Assembly: GCA_031213475.1 (NCBI GenBank)
Contig: JARUPZ010000015.1
Coordinates: 10,568,528-10,632,527, forward strand
Source: Nereocystis luetkeana
Lineage: Eukaryota > Sar > Phaeophyceae > Laminariales > Laminariaceae
Direction of reading: 5' to 3'
Length of the DNA stretch: 64,000 bases
Below the pieces are notes generated by a model. It saw only the letters and a program-made list of their open reading frames with translations, was not told the DNA's origin and searched no databases. Shown here piece by piece: positions 28,177 to 63,861 of the stretch. The number at the start of each line of letters is the position of its first letter. The stretch's first letter is position 1. The position numbers and the translations under genes were made by a program.

Positions 28177-29999
28177 ATGACAAATTGGAACGCTGTCGGG
28201 CCAGATGGTCTCCCGGCCGAACTCCTGAAGATGGAACACCCGGCATTCACACTCAGTGTTTTCACAATATCCTTGTCAATGGTTCGATATTGTGAAAGAT
28301 GCGATCATCAAGGTCCTGCGCAAAAAGAAGCACCGAGCTGACTGCAACAAGTAAGTGCAGAGGGATTTCGCGTGTTGCCCACGCAGGCAACTTTTTTGAA
28401 AGTCGTCGCGTCCCGCCTCAGCAACTACTGCGAGACCGAGGAACTACTCCCTGAGGAACAGTGTGGCCCGGAATTTTATGATAGGACGACCGCCCCCCTT
28501 AGCCTTAAAGTCCGAATGCTGAAGGCCGAGGTGATCGAGACCCTGCTGCACGGGTGTGTGACGTGGACCCTCTGAGCGGAACACTTTTTGCTCACCACCG
28601 AGTCCTGTTGCGAGACATTGGCTTCCAGCGCCGACTTCGTACTGACCATGTCACCCTCTCGTACGCGAAGGCCCTCAAGATGACACGTTGCGAGAGCATC
28701 GAAACGACCATTCGTAAACGGCGGCTCTTCTTTGCGGGGGGCGTGTCACGGTAAAGCAAGGAACGATTACCCAGTCAGTCGGGTAATGTTCGCGACGATA
28801 GCTGGTGGGAAGAACCCGAGACCAGGCGGACAGTGTAAGACTTGGCATAGATGCATAGTCGAAGACCTTAGAGAGTCCCGAGCCACCGAAGGGTCAACGG
28901 AAGTTGCCCCCTTGGTGTTTGGAGTTGAGACCGCGTTGTGGTCCACTGCAGCCAAAAAGGCGGGGAAGTGGTACCGGGAGATCCTTGAAGCAGCCGAACA
29001 GTTCATGGTGAGGTGGCACGAGGTTGAGGCTGAAATGAGTAGGCAGAAAACCCACCCAAGGGAATGCGGAGGGAGGGGGGGCAACAGGAGGAGTAGAAGC
29101 GACACTGCGGTAGACGACAGTAGGAAGGAGATGGCAGACAGGTTAGCAAGGCACCAGGCCGACTAGGAGGTAGAACATGACCATACTCCTATTAATAGTG
29201 CCACCAACTGGTACAGCTGGTTCGAACGTGGTCTTCCCTTGTCTTCTCTTTTTGTTTGTTTTTTCCTTTCTTGCGTTGATTCTCCGTGATTTCATTTTGT
29301 TTATTTCGCTTCCTATTTTTGATTGATAAGCCGTACTAAAAACTGGTGCAGCTGGTTCGAACGTGGTCTTCCCTTGTCTTCTCTTTTTGTTATTAGTAGT
29401 TTGTTTCTTTCTTGCGCTGATTGTCCGTGATTTCATGATATTTTTTCTCTTCCTTTCTTCGATTGATAAGCCGTATTGAAGGAGTCGCGTAGCGTGGGTG
29501 GATGACGAACCTGCTCTGCTTGCTTCGTATTGTCTGACGCCAAGGGGCTGGGCATAGTTGACGAACGCAGGGCGGAGACGGCAGTCTGGGTAGAGCAAGG
29601 TACCAGGCGGACTAGCAGGGAGAACCTAGCTAATATTACTCGTACCACAACCTGCGGCCGCAACCTGGAGGGTGCTTTGGGCTTTGGTCTGCCTTTTATT
29701 TCCCCTTTGTTTTTTTCCCCTTGGTTCATTGTCTTCCTCTGTTTACAATCAGTGGTGTTTTTGTTAGTTTTGTTATTTTTTTCCAGCTCATTCTTTTTCA
29801 AGTGTTGGCCACCTCGCCTCCGGGGGAGGGGCACGACAGATTGCTTCTTCTATTTTTTTTCCCCTAATTTTTTTTCTTCTTCTCTTTTGATTCGTCTTCT
29901 TTGTTTTTGTTTTCTCTTCGATTGTTTCCTTTCGTTTCTCTAGTTCATAGAATGTGTATGTCGTGCCTGTTGTATCTTTTTTTTTATTTTTTTTTTCTT

Positions 30000-30321
30000 C
30001 TCATCCCATTCATTATCTTCGCACATCTTCTTCTCTCTCTCCTTCCAACTCGTAACTCAGATCCGGGGTCACATAGCAGGCTCTTCTACCCCCTTTCCGC
30101 TACGGTACGTGCCTTCATTTTTATCGCGAGAAGATTTCAGCATTTTCTTCCCTCGTCGACTCGCATCGAATTGTGCCTACCCACGCTGCAAGGCGCTCTC
30201 AACAATTGAATCCTTTTTTATTTTTGCAAACAAAGTCAAAGTCCGACCCACCTGGGGCTCGAACCCAGGACTCAAACAAGTAGAATTCGAGGTTAACCAC
30301 TTGAACCACCGGGGCGACCGG
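30000..30321 (-). mobile_element. Hybrid SINE, copy 3 (junction of units 2 and 3)
   Basis: The same recombinant structure as copy 2: copy-4-like tail part and copy-1-like tRNA head. Confidence 0.92.
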
Positions 30322-30992
30322 GTTTCCCTTAGTACTTAGTCGCACTCTGCTAAAAAGTAGAGTGTTGTTTTCTTCTTGAGCACGCTTATTCCAAGTGTCT
30401 GCCACATCCATCCCCTGCGAGGAGGCATTACAGTTTTTTCTACCTTTTTTTGTCTTCGTTATTCCTTTTTCTCTTTCGATTTGTTCATTATATATCTTTC
30501 TTCGTGTTCAGCTCTGTTTTCTTTCGTATTCTCTCTTGCGTAGAATATGTACTTCGTGCTCGTCATATCCAGCCTGCTGACATGGCGTTGCATTGTTTAC
30601 TCTGTGCATACTGCATGCATATCAATGTAATATGCCTCTATGGCGTCGCGTTGTGACCACGTCTGGCATGGTTGAGTTTTTCACTACGGCTATTATTGAT
30701 GCGGTCGAACAATAGGTACCACCCCCTGCACGTCGCCACCGCATACATGGATGATATGAGTCTGCCGAAACCTTGGCCGCATTCATACCAGCATGGCCAG
30801 CGAGGGAGGATGCACGACAGTTCTTGCGTGCCCACCCCCTGGATAGAACCGCGTGGAAAACACCGAGATCTGCGTGTGCGAACCTGCAGAAGAAGGTGAT
30901 TGCCGCAGGACTGCATGCGTACTTCGAAGCGTACCTTGCCGAAACCGAATAACCCCTAGCGAACAACGACCAGAGAGGCTTTTACAAGCATC

Positions 30993-31089
30993 TTAACCCT
31001 TTTAGGACCCCAGTCCCGTTTTGGGGACAAATCAGGTGGAATTAGACTGGTTTGTCCCCGAATCGGGACTGCGGTGCGAAAGGGGTTAA
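30993..31089. mobile_element. Hairpin MITE copy c (unit 3)
   Basis: Identical to the unit 1 and unit 2 copies. Confidence 0.85.
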
Positions 31090-31316
31090 GAGTACGGTAG
31101 GATTGGAAGGGACTAAAACGAGGAGCGACCAGTTCATTAGGGACGAGAATCCCACGCTTTTACGGGATAAGGTGCGAATTCGTGAACGATGGGCGGGGTT
31201 TTGCCACGAACTCTTGAACACGAAGTCGCTGAAACTCGATCCCAAAAGCATCGACCTTTTGCCACCGCGACCGCCTAAACTTTCGCTTGAAGATGAACAA
31301 TCCAAGGGCGAGATGA

Positions 31317-31399
31317 TAGAGCCGCAGTCCCGTTTCGGGGACAAACCACCCAAATTTCAAGTAGTTTGTCCCAAAAACGGGACTGCGGTTCTAAAGGGG
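31317..31399. mobile_element. Hairpin MITE copy d (unit 3)
   Basis: Identical to the unit 1 and unit 2 copies. Confidence 0.85.
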
Positions 31400-33222
31400 A
31401 TGACAAATTGGAACGCTGTCGGGCCAGATGGTCTCCCGGCCGAACTCCTGAAGATGGAACACCCGGCATTCACACTCAGTGTTTTCACAATATCCTTGTC
31501 AATGGTTCGATATTGTGAAAGATGCGATCATCAAGGTCCTGCGCAAAAAGAAGCACCGAGCTGACTGCAACAAGTAAGTGCAGAGGGATTTCGCGTGTTG
31601 CCCACGCAGGCAACTTTTTTGAAAGTCGTCGCGTCCCGCCTCAGCAACTACTGCGAGACCGAGGAACTACTCCCTGAGGAACAGTGTGGCCCGGAATTTT
31701 ATGATAGGACGACCGCCCCCCTTAGCCTTAAAGTCCGAATGCTGAAGGCCGAGGTGATCGAGACCCTGCTGCACGGGTGTGTGACGTGGACCCTCTGAGC
31801 GGAACACTTTTTGCTCACCACCGAGTCCTGTTGCGAGACATTGGCTTCCAGCGCCGACTTCGTACTGACCATGTCACCCTCTCGTACGCGAAGGCCCTCA
31901 AGATGACACGTTGCGAGAGCATCGAAACGACCATTCGTAAACGGCGGCTCTTCTTTGCGGGGGGCGTGTCACGGTAAAGCAAGGAACGATTACCCAGTCA
32001 GTCGGGTAATGTTCGCGACGATAGCTGGTGGGAAGAACCCGAGACCAGGCGGACAGTGTAAGACTTGGCATAGATGCATAGTCGAAGACCTTAGAGAGTC
32101 CCGAGCCACCGAAGGGTCAACGGAAGTTGCCCCCTTGGTGTTTGGAGTTGAGACCGCGTTGTGGTCCACTGCAGCCAAAAAGGCGGGGAAGTGGTACCGG
32201 GAGATCCTTGAAGCAGCCGAACAGTTCATGGTGAGGTGGCACGAGGTTGAGGCTGAAATGAGTAGGCAGAAAACCCACCCAAGGGAATGCGGAGGGAGGG
32301 GGGGCAACAGGAGGAGTAGAAGCGACACTGCGGTAGACGACAGTAGGAAGGAGATGGCAGACAGGTTAGCAAGGCACCAGGCCGACTAGGAGGTAGAACA
32401 TGACCATACTCCTATTAATAGTGCCACCAACTGGTACAGCTGGTTCGAACGTGGTCTTCCCTTGTCTTCTCTTTTTGTTTGTTTTTTCCTTTCTTGCGTT
32501 GATTCTCCGTGATTTCATTTTGTTTATTTCGCTTCCTATTTTTGATTGATAAGCCGTACTAAAAACTGGTGCAGCTGGTTCGAACGTGGTCTTCCCTTGT
32601 CTTCTCTTTTTGTTATTAGTAGTTTGTTTCTTTCTTGCGCTGATTGTCCGTGATTTCATGATATTTTTTTCTCTTCCTTTCTTCGATTGATAAGCCGTAT
32701 TGAAGGAGTCGCGTAGCGTGGGTGGATGACGAACCTGCTCTGCTTGCTTCGTATTGTCTGACGCCAAGGGGCTGGGCATAGTTGACGAACGCAGGGCGGA
32801 GACGGCAGTCTGGGTAGAGCAAGGTACCAGGCGGACTAGCAGGGAGAACCTAGCTAATATTACTCGTACCACAACCTGCGGCCGCAACCTGGAGGGTGCT
32901 TTGGGCTTTGGTCTGCCTTTTATTTCCCCTTTGTTTTTTTCCCCTTGGTTCATTGTCTTCCTCTGTTTACAATCAGTGGTGTTTTTGTTAGTTTTGTTAT
33001 TTTTTTCCAGCTCATTCTTTTTCAAGTGTTGGCCACCTCGCCTCCGGGGGAGGGGCACGACAGATTGCTTCTTCTATTTTTTTTCCCCTAATTTTTTTTC
33101 TTCTTCTCTTTTGATTCGTCTTCTTTGTTTTTGTTTTCTCTTCGATTGTTTCCTTTCGTTTCTCTAGTTCATAGAATGTGTATGTCGTGCCTGTTGTATC
33201 TTTTTTTTTTTTTTTTTTTTTT

Positions 33223-33547
33223 CTCATCCCATTCATTATCTTCGCACATCTTCTTCTCTCTCTCCTTCCAACTCGTAACTCAGATCCGGGGTCACATAGC
33301 AGGCTCTTCTACCCCCTTTCCGCTACGGTACGTGCCTTCATTTTTATCGCGAGAAGATTTCAGCATTTTCTTCCCTCGTCGACTCGCATCGAATTGTGCC
33401 TACCCACGCTGCAAGGCGCTCTCAACAATTGAATCCCTTTTTTTTATTTTTGCAAATAAAGTCAATGTCCGACCCTCCTAGGGCTCGAACCCAGGACTCA
33501 AACAAGTAGAATTCGAGGTTAACCACTTGAACCACCGGGGCGACCGG
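33223..33547 (-). mobile_element. tRNA-derived SINE, copy 4 (right edge of the array)
   Basis: The tail matches the hybrid SINEs. The head differs from them (CCCTTTTTTTTATTTTTGC, ATAAAGTCAATGTCC, CCCTCCTAGGGCTCG). It interrupts a LINE 3' tail: GTGCCTGTTGTATC before, TTATCTACTGTAG...GATGACATGG after. TATCT may be a target-site duplication. Confidence 0.9.
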
Positions 33548-47416: not shown

Positions 47417-47831
47417 CTAATGGGGATGGTGAAACGGTGACGGATGATGACCTGGAGTTCCGTCTGCATGATGTGCCATGTCGACCCCAACAGTTTGTCT
47501 CGATGAGGGGGGAAACAGCTCCGACTGTCGGCCCGGCAAGGCATGCGAGCTTCGGGTGTCTTCATTTCCGAGTGGCTGGCTACCTAAGCTGCCGTTTCCA
47601 CTTCTCAAGTAACCGATTTCATCTCTATTGCTGCTGGCGCCAATAGCATCGTGGACGATTCCGTCGTGCGCTTCTTGGCCGGCGGAAAAGCGATGGGACA
47701 TAGGTGACGACATATCATGTGACGTTTTATCGTCGACGAGCGGCGAATTCGAAGCCGAGGATGGCGGAAGGGAAGGATAACTGCCGTTCACGGGATGCAA
47801 GTCGGACGAGTATGCCGCCAGTCCGGTGCAC
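47417..47831 (-). CDS. EsV-1-7 gene 2, exon d: C-terminal tail
   Basis: The acceptor TTTTCCTAG|G adds one base that completes Gly, then TGC gives the second Cys of CHHRG-C. About 135 residues rich in Ser, His and Pro follow (HPVNGSYPSLPPSSASNSPL ... HHADGTPGHHPSPFHHPH) to a stop at 47,417. No domain is recognised. Confidence 0.75.
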
Positions 47832-50800
47832 CTAGGAAAACAGCAACGACACGAATTCCCAATGGGGAAGCTTGAGTTATGCCTGTCGTCCTACGTCCCA
47901 CTGGAGTTACGAGCACTTCTACGGGAGGCACAACAAGCACGTGCAATCAGAATGATCCATTTCTTCATTTTTCAGACACATCATTATCCCCAGCTTGAGG
48001 CATAGCCACATACTTGAATAGCAGCACCCCTGTTGCCGCTGACTCAAACCACTTGTAGCTCCTCTGGTACACAGACGTGTGGTAAGGGCAGAATAGTGGG
48101 CGTATCGACCGCGCAAAACAAAAAACAGGAAAAGCACCCGCAAGGAATGGGTTTCCCCCGTTTGTGTGCGTTTCCGCAAATCAATCGTGCTATCACCTTG
48201 CGAGTAGAGTATACAAATATGTGAGGAAGTGCTGCGCTAGAACGCGTACGTACGTACGTACCCCCGGTGGTGGCATTGTCGACGTTCCATCTCCATCATC
48301 CCGTCTGCGCAGTGATCCTGACAAAAGCGGCATGCCTCGCCCTCGAATGCGAAGCACGCCTGTTTGAAGCACGCATGGTATCGGCACGGGTGCCCGCCCT
48401 GTAGACGAACGAACGAACGAACGGAAGTCGAAGGATCAGGGGCGCCGGTATCAATGGTCGCAGGTTCACTAACGACCGGCCTAACAGCGCCACTCTAAGT
48501 CCGTACTTTTTAGTTCTCCTGTTGAGGAAGTAGTCCCCCCAATCCATCAGGAAATGCGCCTTTTCATCTGCGAAAGTGAAGGGCGCACGTTGCGCTAGGC
48601 GCATAGAACACTCTCCTGGAAGTTTCAACATGAACACATGCCGGCCGGGGGGAAATCAATTCACCCTTGTGACAATGACACCCACGACTGCGGCAACAGA
48701 AATCAGAAATGAACGATGCTTGTATTGGATACGGAAAAAAGAGTCTAGAAGACTCCGTCGAGCCGCGGAGCAAGTGTCGACGAAAGCCGCCAACTTCCAA
48801 AAACAAACGTATGGTGCGCCACAGTGTATTTCAAGCCAAGTTTTGAGGAAATACTGTTTGCCACAATATACAATAAAAACTAGGAGAGTACGGGGTGCCA
48901 CACTTTATGTGAGAAGGACACGGGTGCATGCATCTCGGAGAAGGCCACGTGCAGTGCTCCTGTAGAGTCCACGATACTGCCTGCCACACAGGGGAATGCA
49001 GGGGTGTCAACACTACTAACCATTGGACTCTCAAAGATCCTGAACAAAGATTGACACTCATGCGGGCACCAAACGAGACCAGGTAGAAGCTTTTGTGCTG
49101 AGGGCATGACACGTTCTGTTCAGCAAAACTATTGGCACGACGCCTGCCTCACGCCGGGCAGCATGCAATCCATACGTGGTAAGCCATAGGAGCAAGCCAC
49201 GCTCTGCAAAGTATGAGCAAAGTGATAGCCACTCGCCATTCGATTGCGCTGCTCATAGAGACCAGATGGTGTTGCGCGGTAAAACAAATGTTTCCTTTTG
49301 ACGTAAAACTTGGGCCGTGACAGACTCACCGGGGACGGCGGCACCATTCCGGGGCAGGCGTGGGCCTCACAAAAACGCGGAGAGTCTTCTCCCGACCACG
49401 AATAAAGCGGGGGTTGCAGGCAGGTTTCCCACACACAGAACCGACGACGCATCTTGACAGAGTCACCTCCCATCATTGCAGCAGCCTGTCAGCGCCGCGG
49501 ATCGCGGCCAAAGCCAGTAAATATATTGATGGGAGTCACGTTTGCGCAGCTAAGCAATCGCAGCGAGCAAGCACGTCATTGCAACCGATAATATTGCCAC
49601 ACGTTCAAGTACTGACGCCTTGATGATGCCACACTTACGGCCCCATGAATTGTGGCCACATATAGACATAAAGCGTGTCGAGAATTCGGTGCGCGGTTAT
49701 CATCGGGCCAGACTGGGTACTTCGGCAGGAAAACATTCCATGCTTGGTTTCCATCAGCAGATGTGTTTGAATCGTTGGTGGATTTGACAGAAGGCTTTTC
49801 TAATTCAACAATGAGAATGTGAACACGCCAACTGGCTACAGATCGAAGACAAGGGTACCAATGATTCCCCAAGACACCACTCACTTAAGTGGGCTACCGC
49901 CACGGTCTGGACACTGCAACTTGAGTATTATTACGGCCGACCAATTTCCACGTTCACGAAGCCGCTATTTTCAAAACGCGCAATGCAGGCCCTGCCACCC
50001 TCCCCACCTGGTGCACGTAGGATTGCTCGCCTGACGGCGAGTGTAGACCGTCCATCGCCCTCCCTCCCCTGCATTCTACCTCACGGCTGCTGGTTGTTGC
50101 CCTGAGGGGTGCGCAATTGATCGAGGGCGGAAGTGGCGGTGAGTGTATATACATTGTCCCGACAAACAGTAACATGTCTGTATCCTTATGGTTTGACGGG
50201 AAAGTTCCGTTGCCGTGGCAGGAAGCCCGGTCAGGGTCCGTTGCGGGCCACGTACACATACTCAAGTCGTGCTGGCCGGCTTCCGCCATGACATACGACC
50301 AGCATAGCCGCACGCCGCCTTCACAGATAAACTGGCTAATCGCGGTGCAGAGGAGGGGTGACACGCAAAGGCCTGCAGCATAACTGTCCAGGTCTACGAC
50401 AAGTGCGGGGTGCGTGGCATCACTGTAATGTTCTTCACGTTGTTCGGGCCGGGGGGTAGCGATCTATCAACCACCAATCACAACCCAGACCGTCCATTGC
50501 CTGCGAGCGGCTATTATACTGCAGTCTTATACTGCGCGAGATAGGCACAGTAGGTTCGCTTACATTGCAGCTCGGACACTATATGTCCCATGAGGTAAGC
50601 GTTTATTCATTCCATGACGTGGATGGGAAATGGCAACGCCAAAGCCCTTTTGTAGCTGCGCCGTGAGGCGAAAACAGCACGCTTGCTATAGAAGGGATAT
50701 CTACAGTAATGGGTACCTGGTATATATATAGCGCGCTTTGGTCCAACGGTTTCCGACCGACGACGCTTTTTGGCTAAGGAACTATCCAGCTATTGTCTCT

Positions 50801-51123
50801 TTCGAACACCGGTATTTCAAAATCAGTGTTATCGTGTGAGTTACTAGTGTGGCAGCAATAGTGCTACTCAAGTGAGGAGCCCCAGGAGCATTTTTCTAGA
50901 GGTATAGCCCTACCGCAGCAAGCATAACTAACATTGAAAACGCACCAACGTTCGACATCTCCCCCCGGTCAAGTCTTTAAATTCTGCCACCTCACCTATC
51001 GGACATGCCGTCGCTCCTATGCCCCCGGCAGAACCGTGGACCCTCGTCATCAAACCCGTACCGCGGCTGCTCTGCGCACCCCCTAAAGCGACACCTCGAT
51101 CCAAATCCATATATCATTCCGCT
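47417..51123 (-). CDS. EsV-1-7 repeat protein gene 2 (5' end unresolved)
   Basis: EsV-1-7 repeats are short Cys/His modules (C-x4-C-x15/16-C-x2-H), abundant in brown algae. The best known member, IMMEDIATE UPRIGHT of Ectocarpus, is a developmental regulator, but the molecular role is unknown. Four exons are read on the minus strand, with three complete repeats (CRFRG-C...FCRGH, CVWET-C...FCEAH, CRYHA-C...FCQDH) and a half repeat CHHRG-C leading into a Ser/His-rich tail of about 135 residues without known domain. The joins at 49,330/48,398 and 48,262/47,831 are in phase and restore repeat spacing. The join between 50,996 and 49,452 is not in phase with any AG seen, so an exon or boundary is missing there. 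The first exon is also not found. It lies directly downstream of the larger EsV-1-7 gene, in the same orientation. Confidence 0.75.
48262..48398 (-). CDS. EsV-1-7 gene 2, exon c
   Basis: The acceptor CTACAG|GGC follows a (TTCG)n-like tract and the donor is GG|GTACGT. It encodes GGHPCRYHACFKQACFAFEG, EACRFCQDHCADGMM and EMERRQCHHR. The repeat has three extra cysteines inside and just after its spacer, unlike all repeats of gene 1. Confidence 0.8.
49330..49452 (-). CDS. EsV-1-7 gene 2, exon b
   Basis: It reads MRRRFCVWETCLQPPLYSW, then SGEDSPRFCEAHACPGMVPP, one complete repeat with a 16-residue spacer. The donor CCG|GTGAGT is in phase 0. The start could be AAG|ATG at 49,452 or CAG|GCT at 49,485. 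Confidence 0.78.
50996..51123 (-). CDS. EsV-1-7 gene 2, exon a
   Basis: The acceptor TTCGCCAG|AGC and donor AG|GTGAGG enclose SGMIYGFGSRCRFRGC, AEQPRYGFDDEGPRFC and RGHRSDGMSD. This is one complete repeat plus the G-M linker on each side. The frame stays open to 51,342, with another possible acceptor at 51,213. Confidence 0.8.
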
Positions 51124-52096: not shown

Positions 52097-53423
52097 TCAA
52101 TGCCTGTGGTACGCTGGAAACCAAGAAAATTCCGTCGCCTCTACCACAGCTGTGGGGGGAAGTGTCTGCCAACGTTCACACATCGCAGCGTATAGCCATG
52201 GCGTAAGCGAACCGCACGGAAGCAAAGGGCGATCGCTGTGCGCTATGGGGGGACGCATATGTAATCGACGCTTCAAGCGTACCTGCTTGTGCTGCTGACA
52301 CGCCTGGTAGCCGGGAACCGGCGGCTGCATGGTAGCGGCCGCCGCGTTTGTCACACCACCCAGAGCCCCCCTCGGCCTGTCGAGCACACCTGTGGAAACC
52401 GCTGGCGCCATTGCCTCTGGGTGCAGTCGAAGTGAATGCGTCGAACTAGATTGCCCTGTCGCCATCGCCGGCGGCATTACCGTTGAGTGCAAACTCGTTG
52501 AATTCGAGGAGAGGGGATGTCTTATCGCCATCCCCGGCTCCACTGTGTCTGACTGCAGACCAGTTGCACTCGTCGAAACAAGCCGTCCTGATGTTCGCAT
52601 TACCACCTCTGACGGTGGACTCGTTGAGTTCGTCGAATCGCGTTCTCCTGTTGTCGTCGACGGCGACGTTGTCGTTGAGTGGAAACCAGTTGAATTCGGA
52701 CAAAGAGGTGCTTGTGCCGTTGTTAAGGCCGGCTGCATCGCCTCTGACGGTAAACTACAAGATTGACTCGAAATCGAAACGGACTGTCCTATTAACATCG
52801 TTGGCACTGTGTCCTTCGATCTGAGACCAACTGAAAGCGTTGACGCGGGCTGTCCGGCTACCACCGGCGTTGATACATCCGTTGATAGCAAATCAATTGA
52901 AGTCGGCGCAACAGCCTGCCGCGCGTCGGAAAAGCACACGCCCCTTTCACTACCAGCTACGTCCGCCAATGGCACTCCCGGAGTGAGCGCTTTCGACATT
53001 TCCTGAGCCGTAGTACACATAGGTTGAGGCCCGACTCCTTGCGGGGATAAACTTGCTGAGACTAATTCTTGCGAGGGAGAACCTTCCGGCAGAATCCCAT
53101 GTGGCATTATTCTTTGAGGCCCGACCCCTTGCGCAACCCGGCCAACGTCGACTCGTTGTAGAGTGTTCGAGCGTGTCACCAAATCCACCGACGGGGACAA
53201 AAATACAAGATGGGCCACCGCCGTTTGCGACCCGACACCAGCCAGCCCCTCGGTGTGCGATACAACAGGTAGCACGGACACAGAAGACGTTGCAACAGCA
53301 ACGGCACCGATGTCAGCCACCTTCAGCTTCTTCGTTCGCCCTTGATGCGCGGGTCTGAGCTCTGCCATATCGTTCTGCGAGTGGTCCAAGCAGACGCGCG
53401 GCTTTCCGCCAATTATTCCGAAC
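52097..53423 (-). CDS. EsV-1-7 gene 1, exon I: last half repeat and Ser/Thr-rich tail
   Basis: The acceptor ATCAAG|G completes Arg, then FGIIGGKPRVCLDHSQNDM closes the eighth repeat with a 15-residue spacer. The long tail to the stop at 52,097 has repeated GVGPQ words, a st-rich array of about 22-residue units and a basic stretch (KQVRLKRRLHMR) near the end. No known domain is seen. Confidence 0.85.
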
Positions 53424-56400
53424 CTTGATGCATGCGAACGGAGGTAGAGGCAGATTGTCAAAAGGAAGGGGGATACGGTCGGCTTTATAGCGAATATTTA
53501 CATGACAGCGGATGCGCTTGGGCGCCCGTAGTGGTTGTCCATGACGGCAAAGACCAAGCGGCGCGAGGTGATACGTAGGGTTTTCCTCTTCCAAGTACTT
53601 CGGGGTTTATAATTAGGGGCGTTTTTATCTCCGAAAAGTTTTGTTCAAATACGCGGGTCTGGTCGTTGTAAAAAAACTCCTTGCCGCATGTGAACACAAG
53701 CGCGAACTCGTACATGAGCTACACCATACATATCGTACAGATCACACAGATCAGAAACACATCTGCCCTGAAAGAGCTAGATCCTGAACTGGAAATGATC
53801 TACTGCGCTGCGATAGGGGTATCACATTCGACCTAAAATAATTTTCGAACGGCTGCGCTCCTCTACCCAAAATCGTCAGATTTGTTTTTTTAATCTGTTT
53901 TGCGATGTCAATAGTTGTACACCTACTGTGGGTTGCTCATCAGTCATAATACTCTCAATTGTTCATCAGTTAATGCACCGTTGGGTGACGTCTAGAGCTC
54001 TTCGAGAGAGGAACCTCATAAAACAAATGGGGCACGATGTTTGTACAGCACATAGAAGATGCATGGTGCCGAGTTCCCGTAGAGTTCTATCGTAGGATAC
54101 GTTAATGTTTTGACGATCGCAGGGTTGATGCATAAGGGGGATCGCTAACACGATGGCTAGAAGGAGTCACAAACAATCCGGTATCAATGTTAACACCCTT
54201 CTGAACACAGCAGAAGTTAGTGTTCAGACAGATACTCCTGTAGTGTAATGAAGAAGGGCGGCCAATGTAGCAAACATTTAACGCGGTAGCGTGCCGAAAT
54301 CCCCAAATGCACACATAGTCTAGACCGTGGGGCGACGTACACATTGTGGTAGTGTGAGCTGCCTGGTACGATAGGAGTAGCGGAAAATGTGTTTTGTATA
54401 TTGTATTATGTTGAGGCGCACGACAAAAACGCGAAACAAAGCCACGCTACCCATGTCGGCTCTTCATGGCGTCAAAACTAACACCTAACCAGTGGGGTCG
54501 GAATTCCGGACGAATTTGAGAAAATCGCGGTGTCTCTTTTGGGTTTGCTTTACGTGGCTTCAGCGTACCGCCCACTATCTTGGTCTCGAAAATATCTATC
54601 AGTGGGGCGTCGGATTCTGTATTATATGTGCACCTCTGGGCTATGCCAAGGTGCAAAGCATATTCGTGTATATTAAAAATAGCGGTGCACGCATACTGGA
54701 GCGACTATTAAGGGGGACCATAGTTAATAGGACCAAATATTGTCAGTAAAAATGGTTAAACATATAGGTTTTTATGTATACCATAGGTCCTATTAACTAT
54801 GGTCCCCCGTAATAGTGACGTCGCTGTCTCAGTCTTTCTCGTGTGACACCAACGGCCGAGAGCGCCAAAGTTAGGTATGGGTAGCACGCTTAGACGCCAG
54901 TCCACCACGAAAAGAAGCCACTGAAAAATTCTTCCGACCGAAATGTTGTGCACCAACCGTAGGTGGGAGAGGTGAGAAGAGGCTACTACGTGATCCCGGA
55001 TCTGAGATACCACCGGAAAGGAGAACGAGCAAGACGGGGGAAGATGATAAAAGGGGTGCAAACATAAAAACAGGTACATACTGCAAACGTCGCAGCATAC
55101 ACGTATTCTGATAAAGAAGCACCGCCGTCGTGCACGCTGCTATCGGGACACGCATGACCTCCAAAGCTGGAAACGAGAGGCTTTCCTTACCGTGGCTGTT
55201 TGGTGCACCCATATATCTCGCACCTCCGATTACGCACATTCACCATACCCTGAAACAGCAAGAGAAAACACACACATTGGAAGGAATGATTCGCAAATTG
55301 ATTTTGCAACCGAACGCACGTGGGGTAACGATAAGGCGACGACCTCCAGTACAAACCAGAACGTAATCGCCAGGTGCCCCCAATGACAAGCCCATACCAG
55401 GTACATCTCAAGCGGAAACATGGGTCCAAGCGCCCATGGCTCATTGGTTAAGTTGGGTTGGATCGCTGAGGCTGGCCCAATCATCACCGTCATATCCGTC
55501 ACCATCATCACCACCAATGTCCTCATCACGATTACCATGGTATGATTAACCGTGATGATCATTTCCATCTTTACTATTGCCACCACCCCCACCACCACCG
55601 CAATCTTCATTCTCTGACGTAATCGCCAAGATAAGCATATTTATAGACCAGTTCTACGATAGAGGTAGCCCATTTCCGCTATTTTGTTTCTGAAAGATGG
55701 GGTTCCTTGAGCCCAAATCGTCGGAATGCCAATCTTGATTTCCAAAAAATAACATTTTCCAGACTCGGGCCAAGGGATTATTCGCCGCGATGCAATCTGA
55801 TTTTTGCTGGAGTCAGTTTTCGGGTGAGGTATGGTGCCCCTTGAGTGAGGAGCCTCATAAAAAATAGTGTGGTCCTCTATCGGAGAACGCCTCTCTTGCT
55901 TCTGTGGCAGATGTGTCATCTATGTATCAAGTAACAGGGTGCATCGAGACCATAACACCACCTTCTCGACGGGGGAGACATGAAAGCTTTCTCGTAACAC
56001 CACCACGCTACATACGTATGGTCAACCCCAACTCCGTGGAGCCAGGCGTGCATCGGTTTCGTCTGCTGCCATCATAAGGTCGTTCCACTTCGGGACCTAG
56101 AAAATGTTGGGTGAACGGTTTGCAGTCCCTAGCACAGGCTACGCACATTTCGTATTGCAGTACCGCGAGTTCACGAGATAACAACACTGACTATGCGTAC
56201 GAGCAACGTGGGGGGTTTGCCCTCATACGAGACATGCTAGAACTCCGTGGCGTAGGAGGGACGTTAGAGGCTCATACATATGACGTTTACCTCTGGGGCA
56301 GAGGATACCTAGGGAGCACCAAACGAAGAAACGTCTGATACATGCATGCCCCCCATGAATGCATGCCTCCCGCCACCGCAGTACATACATGTGCCTGACC

Positions 56401-58718
56401 CCAATGCATGCACGACGCTCTCCACCGGTACCCCCCCCCCGCTCCCCCGGGTACATGCACGCCCCCCCTCGCGTCTAAGCGTATCGCCGAGGACGCACTT
56501 GGGAGCGAGAGGTGCTTCAGACGACCGGCATAGTCGGAGACGGCCTAAGACGGAAGGCTAATGCGACAAGGACACACCGGTACAAAGTAAGACTCACGAG
56601 GGTTTTGTGACTTGCGCATGCCGTGGGCTTGCCGTCCTCACTCCCAAAGGTGGGAAGCTTTCTGCACGCCGGAGCTAAGCAGCACTTGTCAAGCACGTTT
56701 CGCATGCCGTCCACCTTGTGCCCCGAGCACAGAGTAGCCTAGCACAAATAGTAAAAGAAAATACGCTCTCAGCAAATGTAAGGCAGCGAAGTGTTTCACC
56801 CCCACATTTAGTGCATACATGTTTCGCTTTCATGAATTATCCACACTTGTCGAGGGGAACTCATTGGCTCAAGTTGCGCCGTATTTATCTGTGTAAACCA
56901 CATGCCGGACATTTTGTATTCACTACAGTAGGACGTTTCGAAGTGGGGTACTGACCCCAGCTCTTTTACCGCCTTCGCCTGTGACGGCATCGAGGGCAAC
57001 AACAGCCCTCATCACGTAGTACCATAACGACAGGAACAAAACAAATCGGCAGAATCAGGCATGTCTAAACACATGTTGAGCCACCAGGGCTGCTGCGCCG
57101 TCAGTGGTGGCTGTGGCGAGAGCTCGTAGCACCACCGTACTAAAAGGATACGATGGAGTGACCGAGAACCCAAACATGGCGAGCAGCAATAGCAAGGTCG
57201 TTAGACTTGATCGTTAGAGCGCATAGCGCGTAGTTAGTTGGACGGCGAGCTGAAAGACGGAAACAGCACGGGAGGCGTCGTCACGATGGCGTACCCGAGC
57301 ACCTGTATACAAGGTGCCCAAGATAAAAAACATGGATAGAGCTAGACCCATTGTCTCGCGCCGGCAACGTTTCCTTGCCCGGGGAGAAAAAACGAAAACG
57401 CACATAAGTGAGGGCGAAGAATAAAAGAGAAGAAGCGTGCCACGACAGGCTTATGTGGTACCATGGGGCTACATACTTCAGTTATCAGAAAAAAAACGCG
57501 TTTTATCCGAATCACATCTGGGAGGCGGCGCTTCTAAACCGAGGAATTACAGTACCCATTATTGACATGCTTCTATTTCAACAGAAAAAATCGATGAATA
57601 GTCGCGGTAGACCATGAAATAGCGTCGTCGGATCGTCTTTTCATAATTTCGCCGTTGGGCGCACCTGTATACAGAGCACCTCAAGTAGGGAGTCTCACAC
57701 AATATTCCACCGTATTAACCGCAACGCGTCTGCAGTCCTCTTTGGCTAAAACACTGTCTGACTTATGCCCCCCGCCCTAACTGAGGCACTACCCAACCAC
57801 TGTATGGTTGGACTAGTCTAGAATGTTCTTCGAACGTTTCTCGTTGTGTACCTACTGCAAGCCGCGGGTGTGTTCGTCGGACCACACATACATTGTTTCG
57901 TTCCTCAAAGGAAGATGTTTCTGGCGGGACAGGGTTCCTCAAGTGCCGGACCCGAGCAAAAATAGAGGCGTTGAACCTCCTACCGTAGCCTGGGCCATGC
58001 CGTACCAGGCGTCCTGGTTATTGCACTGCATCACAAACAATTACGGCGTACCTTGCCCCCGACAAAGCCAAACACGGGTTGCCTCGTGCACGCGCTCTGC
58101 GCACACCGTCTGTGCTTCATGCTCAGCATTCCCGCCTCCTTGTGCCCGAAACAGAACCGGGGTTTCTCCCCCTGAGGCGAAATAAACACCAAATGATGAC
58201 GTCGGGGTGTCGATCACGTCAAATACGGTGCTTGGTTCGACCGCAATGGATGAATACCCTTTGCTTTTCTCTGCCCTGACCAAACCTATTTTGAAAGCGT
58301 AATTTCTCACAACTTTAACGGAATTGCGCTCCACCACATACGTTCTTCTGGCGCGGAGCACATTTGTCTTTCCCAGTGGATAATACCCAGAGCCTTTTTC
58401 CGACAGGGCAATGAAATACCCCGGAAACACTACGAGCTCTGCTGAAATGTGAAACCACGTGCCAGGTACGGGCTTAGGGAGACACATATCCGTAGTCCAA
58501 CCAATACCTTGGACTATCAACAGTTGACGCTCACACCTCATCGTAAGCGAAGATCTTCGTAAGTGGCAAAGGGGAAGGTAGCCTGCCAACCCTTTCGGAA
58601 CTTGAGAGGGGAATCAATACGGACAAAAATGACGACGATGACAGCATCGGCTACAGCTTGATGATTGATTGGCTGATGACATGAGTAGCAACCGAGGCTC
58701 GACACCAACGACAGTATC

Positions 58719-58749
<31 letters not shown>

Positions 58750-61700
58750 CTTATCAGGGTATGCTAAGCAAGCGAAAAACAACAACGCCAGTTGCCGTAC
58801 GACTCGGTGGGTGCATACTGCATGTACTACCTCGCGAACCTCGAATCTCGACGAAGAGTTTCTCGGGGCCTAAAGAGGGCGCACAGTTGAACGAAAATGA
58901 AACACATATACGGGGTACGATATTGTCCTTTACAAGCACTGGAGGGTTCGCCTCCGTTCAAGTTATTATATTGTGAATACCATATAGGACCACCTCGAAC
59001 GCGTAGGCCGCGACTTTGCTGCACTCTCGATTCATGCAGCGAGCGTGCTTGACGTCCAGCATCCCCTCCTCTTTGTGAGCGGCGCATCGACTGCTTCGCT
59101 GTCCCTCAAACCTGCCGTACACGATCACAGGTGGGCACAACTTTCACCGATGCCTTGGTGGAGGTGATGCCCGATTCGCTAACCCTAACCTGACATCAGG
59201 AGCCCAACATCTCTCGCCCGAATCATGACTTCGAAGTAATATTGACTTTGAAGACATTTCTTTGCGCAACCCGGTCAACTTTCTATGCGCGAAGAATAGT
59301 CATAAAAACAATGTCTTATTACAGGTATCATACAAACCGGCTAACTCTAACCTGGGGAACTTGAGTGGACAGAAAATATGGAGCCAACACGTGGTACCCC
59401 TGATAAATATGGTTGACATTGCTCAGATACACACGGCACGCTATCCGCGTTGGTACAAAGGTAAATTTTACACACATCACACCATCTATTACACAGCCGC
59501 ACCGTGCTACGTGTATCTGTACAGGGGCTGGGTATTCGGTGGCTCCGGCGAAAACCATGAGACACGCGGTCTCGCCAGCTTCCTAGATTGAGCGCATATA
59601 ACACCTCAACCATATTCCTCGCCTGTGCATTAAACCCGTGCGTGTCTACTCGGCTTCTTCGGGCGATCAGTAAATCGTACCTTAACCCAGATAGCAGCTT
59701 ATTCAATGTACTGCTGTGACTAATTCTGTAGCCTTCACAAATATTGGGCGATTTCTTGCTGAAGCCCGAAAGGCTTGCAGAAACAGCCTCTGCGGCAGCA
59801 GCAGCAGCAGCAGCAGCAGCACCAGTATCTTCATAACAGCAGACATGGCTGTGCTTTAGCGACCCGTTGAGAAGGTTGCTCCTTTCCCGATCTTACAAGT
59901 ACTGGCAGTAGCCATAGCCAGGATAGCCGAAACACCGATCCTCTAGTTGTCGTCAGGCTACTTGGTCAAACTCAAAAACAACAAATACACTGCCAATATA
60001 GACCGGGTTTGTGCTCCAACCAAGACGCGGGTTGTATTATGTCGACAAACTAAACGTCACCGCTTATGCTCTCAAACGACCCTTTCCCCAAACACAGCAC
60101 GTGTGCTATAGCCGCGGTACATATACCACAGACGGGGCAACTGGACCAAGCCGAAGAACGGATGCCGAGGCCCGTAGCCCTGTCCAAGGGCGAGGACCGA
60201 CCCCCACCCCCACTCACCCGAATATCGGATTCCTCGAGCATTCGGGAGCGTCACATGCTCGGTTGGTGGAAATGTTGATCATCCCTTCCGCCTTATGGCT
60301 CGTGCACACTCGATAGCCTTTGTCGACCTGAAACATCCACAAAAAAAAAAAAAAAAGCGCGGGGGAGGAAAGCGATTTCGGTTTCGGAATAGCCGGCGCC
60401 CCACAGTGTGCGATGGCGAGTACCCTATTGGTGTTATGAACAGGACTGTGGTGTTGCAGCATTCAAACGCTGTCTACGGTACAAGAGGTTATTTCCTAGC
60501 CCACTAAGGGCTATGACCTTCCCGTCGACCCCGGCTGCAAGTGATCGCTAAATAGATAGGCATAATGTTCACCGACGGCCGGTGGCCACAGACGAAACCC
60601 CTCTGCCAGGATAAACGCCGGGAAATGAGCTACACCGGGGACCACGTCGCTAACATTGATGCGCGACTGCCCAACCCACACGGAGAGTACGAATCGCTGG
60701 TGGTGGGCGAGGGAATGCCGACAGAGGTCCTCTATCAAATTCCCGCCATCAAATGGAAAAACCGCCATTTCCCTTCACTGTGGCCACTCACCGCGGCCAT
60801 AGCTGAAAAGCCGAAAAGGTGAAGAGTCGGCGACGCAACTGACACCCCCGATTTACTCTTATGTTGCTCATAGCTTTCCGCGGCGGAAGCCACGTCTCAG
60901 GGTGTTTGGGGGCCATTTTTTTACCCTAACTTGAATATCATCGACTATCATAAGGGTGCACGAAAAAGTAAGTGCGACACCTCCACTATCTATTTTCGAG
61001 ACCCAGACGGGAGTCAAGTTGAAGAAACACGTTTTCGTACAGTCGTCAAAAACTCCCACCGCACTGATTTGTTTTTGATGATGACTTTTTCGGGAATGAG
61101 ACGTTATTTTTCCATTTTTTCGTGGGTCCCTGACGATCGACACAGAAATTTAACGCCGTTGCCGTGACTGTGTTGACCGTTATCCTGGCGTAGATACGTA
61201 TACGTCGACTCTTCGTGCATCCTATCAATAGTCCTGATTAGCGAAGATGGTGTGACACTCCTTCTCTCTCTGCTCGAGGCTTCCTTCTACGACAACAATC
61301 TTAGACAAATGCCACCAATGTTGGCCCTAGCATCGCGTTAACCTGCGGAAGGCACACTTGAAAACTCACCTCCGAGCTGTGGGTCGGGATCTTAGAACAC
61401 CCCTCAATGGAGCATCTTCTTGACACGACGTTGCACATGCCAGGCTCCTTGTGGCGCGAACAAAACCTCGCCTGACGCCAGCAAGTGTGTCAGTTGCGGT
61501 TCAGAAACACATTTTCTTGAACGTTGGATTCGTCAACGACTCATAAACAACGCGTGTACGCCAGCGTGGACGTGACTCCAATATAAGACATGTTTACCAA
61601 GACCATTCATGATACACGTTTTTGAAGTCGAGGTAGTTGGCATTTGCTCCATTGCTAACACCACACGAAGGTCAAGCCAAGCCATGCCGGAAATGTATAT

Positions 61701-63762
61701 CACGGTTCCCGAAATCCTCCGGCAATTGGTTCCAGAAACCGTTCGACAGGCGAAAGCATGGCTCAAGCGCGCTGCACACATGCTGAAGGTCCCAAAATCG
61801 CATAGTGCCACGAAAACCCCGGCTATGTTCCTCGTTTCCGCAAGTAGAATGGACGGATAAGGCTAACTGTCCTCAACGAACTGACTTGGGAAACACCGTA
61901 CATGTATCCCGACACCAGTTGAAACTTAGCGATTGGAAATATCCCCCAAACACACTGCCCTGGACGAACACCACCTCCAATGCGAGGAAAAAATAAAAAT
62001 ACATCCTCGCGGAATTCCTGCGGCTCAGAGCAAGCGTCAAAACGAGTAAAAAAAAACACCCAGTAGCTGAGTCAACTCGCCACAATGAAAGGCAGAGTCA
62101 ATCTGCTGCTTTGTCGCTATGACCACGTCACGTTTATTATTTTCCAATCCTATGTATCATCTTCGACCTTCTTTTCTCTCTCCTTTATCACCGTAGCTCT
62201 CTTCCCCCCTACCCCCTACCCACTCCATGCCTTCATTGCTATCGCGAGAAGGCTTCATCCCTCTTTTCCCGAGTAGACTCGCGTCGAATGGCACCTACAA
62301 ACGCTATGCGCTCTCACCAGTCGATTTCGATCAAAATAAGTAGCCGCCCAACATGGCAGGGCTCCAAGCCCAAGCCCTCGGCCTTGCCTCGAAAATAATA
62401 CCGCTGATTCAACATGTTGTGGAAAAGGCGATAAGTAATCGTTGCAAGCCTCCATCCCGCAACTCCCGTGAACAATGTAACTGCCATGCCATACTGCGTT
62501 TCCAGCCACCAGTGCAAAATCTCACTTTGCCGCCGGGAACGCCATAGACCCGATGGCGGACGCAGTCCACGACCTCGCAGCGCTTGTGCTTGAGGTCGAC
62601 CATTCCCCGAATTTTGTGAATGCCGCACGCCGTCGCTTGTTGTTTCACATCGAAACCTGACAAACGACAAAGGACAAAGGAGGACCGAGATCGTGATGGT
62701 GCGATGACAGGACAGCAGGCCCTATGGCATTCAGGCTGGAGAGCAATCCTGTTTTCCTATATATGCGTTTGAAGAGTAGGAATAGTATCCCCTTCACACT
62801 AAAGCCACCTATGTTACGTCGGCATTCGGTCAACGACTATTCGTGCGGTCAAGTGTTACTACCCAAAGGCTACCAATGACTCCCTGCCCAAAGCTAGTGT
62901 CCGGTTTTCAAACCTGAAGCTGCCGCTGCAGTCAGGTCTGCATACAACACCTGAAGCGTGTCCAACGTTATATTCGAACTGCCACCAGTCAAACCAACCT
63001 CGATGAATATGACTCTCCTTGTTTATCATGTAGGGCTCGGCCTATTCCGATGAACGAACAAGCAACTTGTCAGACCGAATAGAATCATGCCATCCTTGGG
63101 CGCGATGTACAGGCGGCCTGTTGCCGATGAACGCATACGGCACGAAAGACGAAGCACTACGGAAACGACGCCCCTCCACGCGAGACAGGTATCAAATATA
63201 CTGCTTCAACAGGCCGGCGTGTGAATTCCGTGGGATGGAAAGCAGGGCGTATTCAACTACCAGGTATAGCATGGGAATGTACTCGCCCATATACTTGCAT
63301 CATCGTTCACTTGACATGTTTATATTTGTGCCACCGCATTTCAATATACCAGCAACGTCCCCCTGCAACCGGCAAGTTTCCCGAAGGGAATCAAACCAAA
63401 CATGACAATCGCGAGGGCTGTATCCATCAGCTCCATCACAAGGGCTTCGAAATATACTTGACTGGAGTCTAGCCCTAATCCTAACATCAACCCAGTCCAC
63501 CTAGGGGATCCCCAAATACTGACCTCATACCCGACCGCTGTGGGATTTAGTGATAAACGACTATCAACCATATAAGGTACCAGGTATGGTCCAAGCTGGG
63601 TCAATTCATAAATACTACTGAATTCCTCATGTCGGAAAATGTCACCGCGAAGAACGTACCGTAGAAGGCGGCGCGGTGGCAGTCGGGCGTCTCGCATCCT
63701 TTGGTAGTCCGCAATACCATTGACTCTAGTCGGTGCCGTGCGCATGCTGTCTGGGTCGCCCC
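52097..63762 (-). CDS. EsV-1-7 repeat protein gene 1, eight repeats plus Ser/Thr-rich tail (5' end outside window)
   Basis: Nine minus-strand exons join in phase across eight introns of about 0.8-1.8 kb. Each join places the next Cys exactly 15 or 16 residues after the previous pair, so the model is strongly constrained. The product has eight complete C-x4-C-x15/16-C-x2-H repeats linked by H-x3-GM-x6/7-(R)C, preceded by the C-x2-H end of a ninth. A 441-residue tail follows, rich in Ser, Thr, Ala and Pro, with about seven degenerate 22-residue repeats. All introns fall inside a repeat or in the H-GM linker, so most exons carry the back half of one repeat and the front half of the next. EsV-1-7 proteins include the Ectocarpus developmental regulator IMMEDIATE UPRIGHT; biochemical activity is not known. 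The start codon lies beyond the right edge. Introns hold a MITE, SINE scraps and (CAG)n and (CAA)n tracts. The family also occurs in a phaeovirus, but introns and host repeats argue for a host gene. Confidence 0.88.
52388..52860 (-). repeat. Coding tandem repeat, about seven 66-69-bp units
   Basis: On the minus strand the units read like GQPASTLSVGL, GQSVSISSQS, NSTGFHSTTT, GRLVSTSATGL, NSTSLHSTVM, GQSSSTHSLRL, each followed by a P/A-x-M/T segment. They are in frame with the EsV-1-7 tail and degenerate in sequence, so they are not a recent expansion. Confidence 0.7.
54708..54812. mobile_element. TTACGGGG MITE, copy 6 (105 bp)
   Basis: TTAAGGGGGACCATAG at the left and its near-perfect reverse complement at the right, flanked by TA. 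It lies in the H/I intron of EsV-1-7 gene 1. Confidence 0.9.
54893..55062 (+). repeat. Old SINE-like body fragment
   Basis: It carries GAGAAGAGGCTACTACGTGA and TCCCGGATCTGAGA in the SINE body order. It is diverged and headless, in the H/I intron. Confidence 0.55.
55191..55249 (-). CDS. EsV-1-7 gene 1, exon H
   Basis: A 59-base exon between TGTTTCAG|GGT and CG|GTAAGG. It reads GMVNVRNRRCEIYGCTKQP and ends in phase 2 within an Arg codon. Confidence 0.9.
56598..56738 (-). CDS. EsV-1-7 gene 1, exon G
   Basis: It reads ATLCSGHKVDGMRNVLDKCC, LAPACRKLPTFGSEDGK and PTACASHKTL, with a complete repeat inside one exon. The acceptor is GTGCTAG and the donor CTC|GTGAGT in phase 0, splitting the H-K-x-x|GM linker. 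Confidence 0.88.
58052..58171 (-). CDS. EsV-1-7 gene 1, exon F
   Basis: Between CCTCAG|GGG and AAG|GTACGC, phase 0 at both ends. It reads GEKPRFCFGHKEAGMLS, then MKHRRCAQSACTRQPVFG and FVGGK, close to the family consensus. A longer 182-codon frame on the same strand overlaps it in another phase and is probably fortuitous. Confidence 0.9.
58717..58750 (+). repeat. (CAA)n microsatellite
   Basis: About eleven CAA units in the E/F intron. The Leu-rich minus frame over it is fortuitous. Confidence 0.9.
58994..59111 (-). CDS. EsV-1-7 gene 1, exon E
   Basis: One base completes the Gly of exon D, then FEGQRSSRCAAHKEEGML, DVKHARCMNREC and SKVAAYAFE follow. The donor GAG|GTGGTC is weaker than the others but is the one that restores a 15-residue spacer with exon F. 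Confidence 0.87.
59794..59823 (+). repeat. (CAG)n microsatellite
   Basis: About nine to ten GCA units in the D/E intron of EsV-1-7 gene 1. Confidence 0.9.
60218..60327 (-). CDS. EsV-1-7 gene 1, exon D
   Basis: An unusually long T-run and GTTTCAG precede GTC. The exon reads VDKGYRVCTSHKAEGMI, then NISTNRACDAPECSRNPIF, and ends GG|GTGAGT in phase 2. Confidence 0.9.
61370..61471 (-). CDS. EsV-1-7 gene 1, exon C (no ATG)
   Basis: It reads ARFCSRHKEPGMCNVVSRRC, then SIEGCSKIPTHSSE, between GCGTCAG|GCG and GAG|GTGAGT, phase 0 at both ends. It has no ATG upstream in frame, so it is visible only through the repeat pattern. Confidence 0.87.
62125..62300 (-). repeat. Old SINE-like body fragment
   Basis: TTTTCTCTCTCCTT, CCTTCATTGCTATCGCGAGA and GTAGACTCGCGTCGAATGG follow the order of the SINE body in minus orientation. 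The head is lost. It lies in the B/C intron. Confidence 0.6.
62526..62656 (-). CDS. EsV-1-7 gene 1, exon B
   Basis: Two bases GT complete the Gly of exon A, then FDVKQQATACGIHKIRGM, VDLKHKRCEVVDC and VRHRVYGVPGGK follow. The spacer across the A/B join is 16 residues. The donor AAA|GTGAGA is in phase 0. Confidence 0.88.
63660..63762 (-). CDS. EsV-1-7 gene 1, exon A
   Basis: Between TATCACAG|GGG and TACG|GTACGT. It reads GATQTACARHRLESMVLRTT, then KGCETPDCHRAAFY. It gives the C-x2-H end of one repeat and the first C-x4-C of the next, ending in phase 1. Confidence 0.85.
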
Positions 63763-63861
63763 CTGTGATAAATAACAGCAATTAGTGCTCGACAATGGCG
63801 ACTGTGCTGCTCCTGTGAAAAATATCAGCAAGTAGTGCTCGGGATAGCGGCAACTGTGCTG
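63761..63861 (-). repeat. Tandem duplication of a 3' splice-site region
   Basis: Two roughly 48-50-bp copies (63,761-63,808 and 63,811-63,861) share, on the minus strand, CAGT(T/C)GCC, CGAGCACTA and TTGCTG-TATTT-TCACAGG. The copy next to exon A supplies its acceptor; the other is a second potential acceptor upstream. Confidence 0.75.

What the first reader, a model, noticed from the sequence alone, without database searches (positions are those of the whole stretch)
52097..63762. A large EsV-1-7 gene rebuilt from nine exons, several of them invisible to ORF calling
Seen: eight splice joins in three different phases each restore C-x4-C-x15/16-C-x2-H spacing, which is very unlikely by chance. 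Known: the family includes IMMEDIATE UPRIGHT of Ectocarpus. Inference: this is a long member with at least eight repeats and a large tail, combining a repeat array with an unusual low-complexity region.
Basis: partly seen in the sequence, partly recalled or inferred. Interest (0 to 1): 0.78.

Follow-up and report, generated by a model that had tools for sequence, protein, structure and literature searches.

The report
Multi-exon EsV-1-7 zinc-finger-like repeat gene
This is a real, long, intron-rich gene of a zinc-finger-like family known from brown algae and giant viruses; it looks intact, probably runs past both ends given for it, and is otherwise an ordinary member of its family.

Summary
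On the minus strand, nine exons (63762 down to 53423 and beyond) join through eight GT-AG introns in phases 1,0,0,2,0,0,0,2 with no stop. Seven joins rebuild C-x4-C-x15/16-C-x2-H; the eighth (G-H) rebuilds the 12-residue link between repeats. Pfam's EsV-1-7 profile (PF19114) matches the joined protein in 8 stretches, E=5.2e-72; five of nine exons pass its cut-off unjoined. It is a new member of a known family.

Two corrections. The 1.1-kb 'large tail' is probably an internal linker: a donor after ...CQQHKQ (52283) and an acceptor at 51123 restore the repeat link exactly and add a repeat (exon J); 1 of 20,000 random pairs allowed the like. The 5' end most likely lies beyond the window.

A second, shorter EsV-1-7 gene follows on the same strand (49476-47417). 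Intron positions differ between repeats, so whole-exon duplication alone does not explain them.

The parts
63660..63762 (-). Exon A: end of a repeat whose first half is not in the window (CARH) and start of repeat 2 (CETPDC)
   Evidence: acceptor ATCACAG|, donor ACG|GTACGT; Pfam 17.0 bits alone; no in-frame ATG from 63882 down to the exon
62526..62656 (-). Exon B: end of repeat 2, start of repeat 3
   Evidence: Pfam 31.2 bits unjoined; join A-B in phase 1 restores x16
61370..61471 (-). Exon C: end of repeat 3, start of repeat 4
   Evidence: Pfam 36.4 bits unjoined; join B-C phase 0, x15
60218..60327 (-). Exon D: end of repeat 4, start of repeat 5
   Evidence: Pfam 24.7 bits unjoined, just under the cut-off; join C-D phase 0, x16
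58994..59111 (-). Exon E: end of repeat 5, start of repeat 6
   Evidence: Pfam 29.0 bits unjoined; join D-E phase 2, x15; weak acceptor tract and weak donor
58052..58171 (-). Exon F: end of repeat 6, start of repeat 7
   Evidence: Pfam 42.2 bits unjoined; join E-F phase 0, x15, the better of two choices
56598..56738 (-). Exon G: end of repeat 7 and the C-x4-C-x15-C-x2-H core of repeat 8
   Evidence: Pfam 38.6 bits, 2 stretches; join F-G phase 0, x15
55191..55249 (-). Exon H (59 nt): link of repeat 8 and start of repeat 9 (CEIYGC)
   Evidence: join G-H restores the 12-residue link KTLGMVNVRNRR; alone only 10 bits in Pfam
52283..53423 (-). Exon I: end of repeat 9 (CLDH), then about 360 residues rich in Ser/Thr/Val/Ala/Pro with degenerate 66-bp periodicity, ending ...CQQHKQ; read here as internal
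   Evidence: donor CAG|GTACGC. Read through, the ORF continues to a stop at 52097
50996..51123 (-). Exon J: completes the link KQSGMIYGFGSR and holds the full repeat CRFRGC-x15-CRGH; donor ATAG|GTGAGG, phase 2
   Evidence: only one GT-AG choice gives a link of 12-13 residues; Pfam 35.7 bits alone, 46.3 bits joined to the end of exon I; next exon not found
49330..49476 (-). Neighbour gene, exon 1: ATG and repeat CVWETC-x16-CEAH
   Evidence: Pfam 28.1 bits unjoined; donor CCCG|GTGAGTC
48262..48398 (-). Neighbour gene, exon 2: repeat CRYHAC-x15-CQDH and start of a third, degenerate repeat (CHHRG)
   Evidence: Pfam 23.7 bits alone, under the cut-off; joined product 39.9 bits; acceptor CTACAG
47417..47831 (-). 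Neighbour gene, exon 3: completes CHHRGC, then Ser/Pro-rich tail to the stop; whole product 232 aa
   Evidence: acceptor TTGCTGTTTTCCTAG

Best explanation
The feature is an intact-looking protein-coding gene on the minus strand for an EsV-1-7 domain protein. Its array has at least nine complete C-x4-C-x15/16-C-x2-H repeats: eight in exons A to I and one more in exon J after a long low-complexity linker. Shown by sequence: the exons, the open frame, the repeat pattern and the splice-site grammar. Inferred: each repeat folds around one zinc ion held by three Cys and one His (about 0.8 likely); the array is a multi-finger nucleic-acid or chromatin binding surface of a nuclear regulator, with the Ser/Thr/Pro-rich stretch as a flexible linker or effector region (about 0.45 likely); exon I is spliced to exon J, so the stop at 52097 lies in an intron or is used only by an alternative transcript (about 0.75 likely). 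The confidence below is for the gene and its family, not for the mechanism.
For: Pfam PF19114: 8 stretches, E=5.2e-72. Eight of eight joins in frame with GT-AG sites; seven have a single choice. No stop in 2153 nt over ten exons. GC at third codon positions of the repeat exons is 0.70 against 0.54 and 0.51 at the first two. Join I-J: unique choice, donor 5 of 7, 12 of 15 pyrimidines, restores K-x2-G-M-x7-C; of 20,000 random pairs 16% allowed any join, 0.14% one with good sites, 1 pair one with K and GM in place. Intronless relatives with 7, 8 and 12 Pfam stretches in 3 of 19 fetched loci. The model of one relative matches the viral protein EsV-1-7 (Q8QNQ2) at E=7.6e-10.
Against: No transcript was available. 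Two of the eight joins (D-E, E-F) miss the good-site standard. The Cys and His of the repeats were used to find them, so their presence is no separate proof of function. The window's exon G model has low confidence (mean pLDDT 65.6); the relative's three-repeat model (83.6) matches no solved structure at E<=0.001 (best 0.86), so fold and zinc binding are not shown. The last half repeat of exon I (CQQH) has no C-x4-C upstream. After exon J no next exon could be placed. Exon I has no third-position GC bias (0.547). The I-J join was noticed by eye before it was tested.
Confidence: 0.88

Rival explanations
1. One reading: the gene ends at the stop at 52097, so exon I is terminal and the low-complexity part is a C-terminal tail; exon J belongs to another gene whose first exon is nested in exon I (an ATG opens MQPPVPGYQACQQHKQ).
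For: The ORF stays open for 61 codons past the proposed donor. An in-frame ATG stands 16 codons before the donor. The exon after J was not found.
Against: The end of exon I and exon J have a donor and acceptor that restore the family link exactly. A nested start on the same strand and in the same frame needs an extra assumption.
Confidence: 0.2
2. A decaying pseudogene or a set of unexpressed exon relics.
For: No transcript evidence; the last half repeat of exon I and the third repeat of the neighbour gene are degenerate.
Against: No stop or frameshift over ten exons; GC bias at third codon positions in the repeat exons.
Confidence: 0.06
3. All EsV-1-7 exons from 63762 to 47417 form one very long gene, with exon J leading through an unseen exon to the repeats at 49437 and 48386.
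For: Same strand, same family, gaps of about 0.9-1.5 kb as between the other exons.
Against: No GT-AG choice from exon J to the repeat at 49437 gives a link of 12-13 residues; the exon at 49476 has its own ATG and gives a closed 232-aa product.
Confidence: 0.12
4. Chance: Cys/His pairs joined by freely chosen GT and AG sites.
For: A free choice of GT and AG gives some join of the right length in 16-17% of random pairs.
Against: Eight of eight joins succeed, Pfam gives E=5.2e-72, and five of nine exons pass its cut-off before any joining.
Confidence: 0.001

Closest known systems
EsV-1-7 domain family (Pfam PF19114), including Ectocarpus IMMEDIATE UPRIGHT (IMM)
   Same: Same repeat, recognised by Pfam at E=5.2e-72. 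[quoted passage not shown] the eight repeats of the main array are 37-39 residues long.
   Different: At least nine full repeats, seven of the eight introns of the main array between Cys2 and Cys3 of a repeat, and a long low-complexity stretch between repeats. How unusual this is among the 90 members of Ectocarpus species 7 (PMC12629598, passage) could not be checked; the founding paper (Macaisne 2017) is not held.
EsV-1-7 protein of Ectocarpus siliculosus virus 1 and giant-virus relatives
   Same: The model of relative L013 matches Q8QNQ2 (EsV-1-7, E=7.6e-10) and other giant-virus proteins; 23 matches at E<=0.001.
   Different: The three relatives read here (L002, L009, L013) are arrays in one uninterrupted frame; this gene is split by introns of 0.8-1.8 kb.
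TcMar-2_Ec32 transposase with an N-terminal EsV-1-7 domain (Ectocarpus)
   Same: Shares the domain (PMC12477816, passage).
   Different: Pfam at E up to 1 named no transposase domain in the joined product. A weak hit to a putative transposase family (DUF4096, E=0.13, under the cut-off) lies in the read-through frame around exon H.

Membership tests
EsV-1-7 domain family (PF19114) | Tandem C-x4-C-x15/16-C-x2-H motif recognised by the curated profile above its cut-off | tested here: met
   237.8 bits against a cut-off of 25, 8 stretches; exon J alone 35.7 bits
EsV-1-7 domain family (PF19114) | Repeat unit of about 38 residues in an array | tested here: met
   Eight units of 37-39 residues in the main array
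EsV-1-7 domain family (PF19114) | Relatedness to the viral protein EsV-1-7 | tested here: met
   Indirect: the window's repeat profile finds L013 (E=1.9e-94), and the model of L013 matches Q8QNQ2; no direct comparison with the viral protein was made
EsV-1-7 domain family (PF19114) | Brown-algal (or giant-virus) origin of the gene | not testable with these tools
   No genome is held for the window; the organism was not identified
Zinc finger | Zinc held by the Cys3His set | not testable with these tools
   Cys3His is invariant in 11 repeats of the window, but these were picked by that pattern; an invariant Met was not. No solved structure of the repeat found by sequence or fold at E<=0.001
IMM orthologue | Five repeats at the C-terminal end | tested here: not met
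   At least nine repeats, with a long stretch after the eighth full one
IMM orthologue | IMM N-terminal region | not testable with these tools
   The 5' end is outside the window and no IMM sequence was at hand

The most novel reading that the evidence does not exclude
The repeat array was built first and split afterwards: introns were gained separately in successive repeats, mostly in the stretch between the second and third Cys. The eight introns of the main array stand at six different places of the repeat frame and in all three phases, and share almost no sequence. Seven of eight lie between Cys2 and Cys3, a stretch that makes up 41-43% of the repeat (binomial 0.009-0.014), and the three relatives read here are intronless.
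Probability: 0.3. Interest if true: 0.5.

Novelty: new member of a known kind. Interest (0 to 1): 0.32.

Why it matters
EsV-1-7 genes have expanded in brown algae, include a developmental regulator (IMM) and occur in viral genomes (PMC7457493, passage; giant viruses: PMC12477816, passage). A correct model of a long member, with its repeats, linker and neighbour gene, is needed before such genes can be counted, expressed or edited; ORF-based annotation would miss most of it. The uneven intron positions make a testable case of how a family shared with giant viruses came to be split by introns in a host.

Tried and rejected
The window's own genome was asked for: none held. Single-protein scans gave no confirmed relative: 1 stretch of viral contigs and 12 of genome contigs matched a pattern, none passed tblastn. 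A two-repeat DNA pattern then gave 3 and 16 loci; 3 of these 19 hold EsV-1-7 arrays at profile E<=0.01 and 16 do not. Direct joins from exon J to the repeat at 49437, and from that repeat to the one at 48386, with a link of 12-13 residues do not exist; the second pair does join in frame with a 14-residue link. Candidate exons after J were listed and none was convincing. Tandem Repeats Finder found nothing in exon I; DNA autocorrelation at 66 bp (4.3 sd above other lags), protein autocorrelation at 22 residues (z 3.4 against a 95% shuffle limit of 3.1) and a four-copy 74-nt family did. Whole-exon duplication as sole origin of the array was rejected because intron positions differ. Recent copying of introns was rejected: compared with each other at E<=1e-3 they share one 41-bp match, though introns B-C and H-I each hold an old copy of a repeat common elsewhere in the window. 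Weak Pfam hits under their cut-offs (SBP, WRKY19 zinc finger, ARL6IP6, EGF_LRP2, DUF4096 and others) were not followed. PHROGs and NCBIfam gave nothing useful. A literature search for the Pfam name or accession found no paper; 'EsV-1-7' is in 5 papers of the library, read as passages only. In one search exon J was started one base late and its printed product is wrong; corrected. In one search the neighbour gene's exon 2 was cut one base short; corrected.
Full report
What is there. The finding describes a gene on the minus strand. I read the region, translated it and fixed nine exons by their splice sites: A 63762-63660, B 62656-62526, C 61471-61370, D 60327-60218, E 59111-58994, F 58171-58052, G 56738-56598, H 55249-55191 and I from 53423. 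The eight introns are 822-1767 bp long, all GT-AG, in phases 1,0,0,2,0,0,0,2. The joined frame is open to a stop at 52097. It holds eight complete C-x4-C-x15/16-C-x2-H repeats and, at the 5' edge, the second half of another.

Is it more than chance. Pfam's EsV_1_7_cys profile (PF19114) matches the joined product with 237.8 bits, E=5.2e-72, in 8 stretches. Before any joining, five of nine exon frames pass its cut-off of 25 bits (B, C, E, F, G); A (17.0), D (24.7), H (10.0) and I (12.6) do not. Joining does not raise the total (241.7 bits summed over single exons), so the joins must be judged on spacing and splice sites. For seven joins there is exactly one GT-AG choice that restores the spacing, and for E-F two, of which the better was taken. 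Random site pairs in this window offer any x15/16 join in 17% of 8000 trials, and one with good sites in 0.19%. Six of the eight joins meet that good-site standard; D-E (poor pyrimidine tract) and E-F (poor donor) do not. Seven joins restore the motif itself; G-H restores the 12-residue link between repeats. A DNA pattern for the second half of one repeat and the first half of the next has five matches in the window and none in 100 shuffles; I wrote the pattern after seeing these exons, so it is a weaker test.

Further down the same strand lie three more repeats, at 51093, 49437 and 48386, scoring 35.7, 28.1 and 23.7 bits in Pfam, the last under the cut-off. The stretch ...ACQQHKQ in exon I is followed by the donor CAG|GTACGC, and the repeat at 51093 is preceded by the acceptor TTCCTTCGCCAG|. 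Joined, they read CQQH-KQSGMIYGFGSR-CRFRGC, with the family's 12-residue link. It is the only GT-AG choice that gives a link of 12 or 13. Of 20,000 random pairs, 16% allow any such join, 0.14% one with good sites, and one pair (0.005%) one with K and GM in place. The join lifts the Pfam score from 35.7 to 46.3 bits. I noticed it by eye before testing it. I conclude that exon I (53423-52283) is most likely internal and that exon J is 51123-50996. Exon J ends at a good donor in phase 2, but I could not place the next exon. At the other end, the frame of exon A has no ATG up to 63882, where it closes, and exon A opens with half a repeat, so at least one more exon most likely lies beyond the window.

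The linker. The 361 residues between the two repeat blocks are 14% Ser, 10% Thr, 10% Val, 10% Ala and 9% Pro. The DNA has a period of 66 bp (4.3 sd above other lags) and the protein one of 22 residues (z 3.4, just above the 95% shuffle limit of 3.1). A 74-nt family has four copies, three of them 61-73% like the fourth. Tandem Repeats Finder saw nothing. I read it as an old, degenerate minisatellite rather than simple sequence.

The neighbour gene. Exons 49476-49330, 48398-48262 and 47831-47417 join in frame to a 232-residue product beginning MMGGDSVK, with two complete EsV-1-7 repeats linked by 14 residues, the start of a third, and a Ser/Pro-rich tail (39.9 bits in Pfam). I read it as a second gene: no join from exon J gives a 12-13 residue link.

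Relatives and structure. A two-repeat DNA pattern in viral contigs and in prokaryotic genome contigs gave 19 loci. Three hold EsV-1-7 arrays in one uninterrupted frame, with 7, 8 and 12 Pfam stretches: L002 (IMG/VR), L009 and L013 (contigs of MAGs labelled Terriglobia and Planctomycetota, which may be misbinned). The other 16 do not. A three-repeat model of L013 (mean pLDDT 83.6) matches EsV-1-7 of Ectocarpus siliculosus virus 1 (Q8QNQ2, E=7.6e-10) and other giant-virus proteins, 23 matches at E<=0.001, but no solved structure at E<=0.001 (best 0.86). Sequence searches found no convincing solved relative (best E 0.23; none). The model of the window's own exon G is of low confidence (65.6). Zinc binding therefore rests on the Cys3His pattern (11 repeats picked by that pattern) and on the literature's proposal, not on a test here.

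How it most likely works. The passages I read call the motif a possible class of zinc finger (PMC12477816), say that the 90 members of Ectocarpus species 7 have been hypothesised to be zinc finger transcription factors (PMC12629598), and report that loss of one member, IMM, changes early sporophyte development (PMC7457493; PMC12853178). Ten members are among generation-biased genes (PMC6368402, passage). By analogy this protein would be a regulator with a long finger array split by a flexible linker. That is inference.

Introns. Measured from the first Cys of the repeat, the eight introns of the main array stand at 10.67, 12.33, 12.67, 15, 15, 18, 18 and 28 residues. Only two pairs agree. Compared with each other the introns share one 41-bp match, apart from old copies of a window-wide repeat in introns B-C and H-I. 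Whole-exon duplication alone would keep one place and one phase. Seven of eight lie between Cys2 and Cys3 (binomial 0.009-0.014 by chance). This suggests that introns entered after the array existed; moved splice sites are not excluded, and no related algal genome was at hand.

Verdict. The introns (0.8-1.8 kb) are longer than the Ectocarpus autosomal median of 524 bp (PMC12477816, passage), which hints at, but does not show, another species. I cannot say whether the gene is already annotated. The founding paper (Macaisne 2017) is not held; what is said of it comes from papers that cite it.

Noticed in passing
23544-33547: Three tandem copies of a unit of about 3.22 kb, 99.5-99.7% identical, with the same ORFs, one of which looks to me like part of a reverse transcriptase (no search made). 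Either a recent triplication or an assembly effect.
   Followed up: partly
2586-2697, 16698-16809, 18458-18573, 54705-54815: An element of about 111 bp in four copies, 74-95% alike, the last one palindromic and inside the intron between exons H and I: a likely miniature inverted-repeat transposon.
   Followed up: partly
54878-55074 and 62196-62319: Old copies (70-75% alike) of parts of a roughly 340-bp repeat that is common at 23-45 kb, inside introns H-I and B-C.
   Followed up: no
63763-63830: A short near-duplicate stretch carries a second acceptor-like TTTTTCACAG just upstream of exon A's acceptor.
   Followed up: no
L009:1410-3140: After its EsV-1-7 repeats the protein on this contig of a MAG labelled Terriglobia has a long C-terminal region that Pfam does not name at E up to 0.1; it looks nuclease-like to me, untested, and some giant-virus matches are named endonuclease.
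   Followed up: no
L013:6518-7999: A 12-repeat EsV-1-7 array on a contig of a MAG labelled Planctomycetota, possibly a misbinned giant virus.
   Followed up: no
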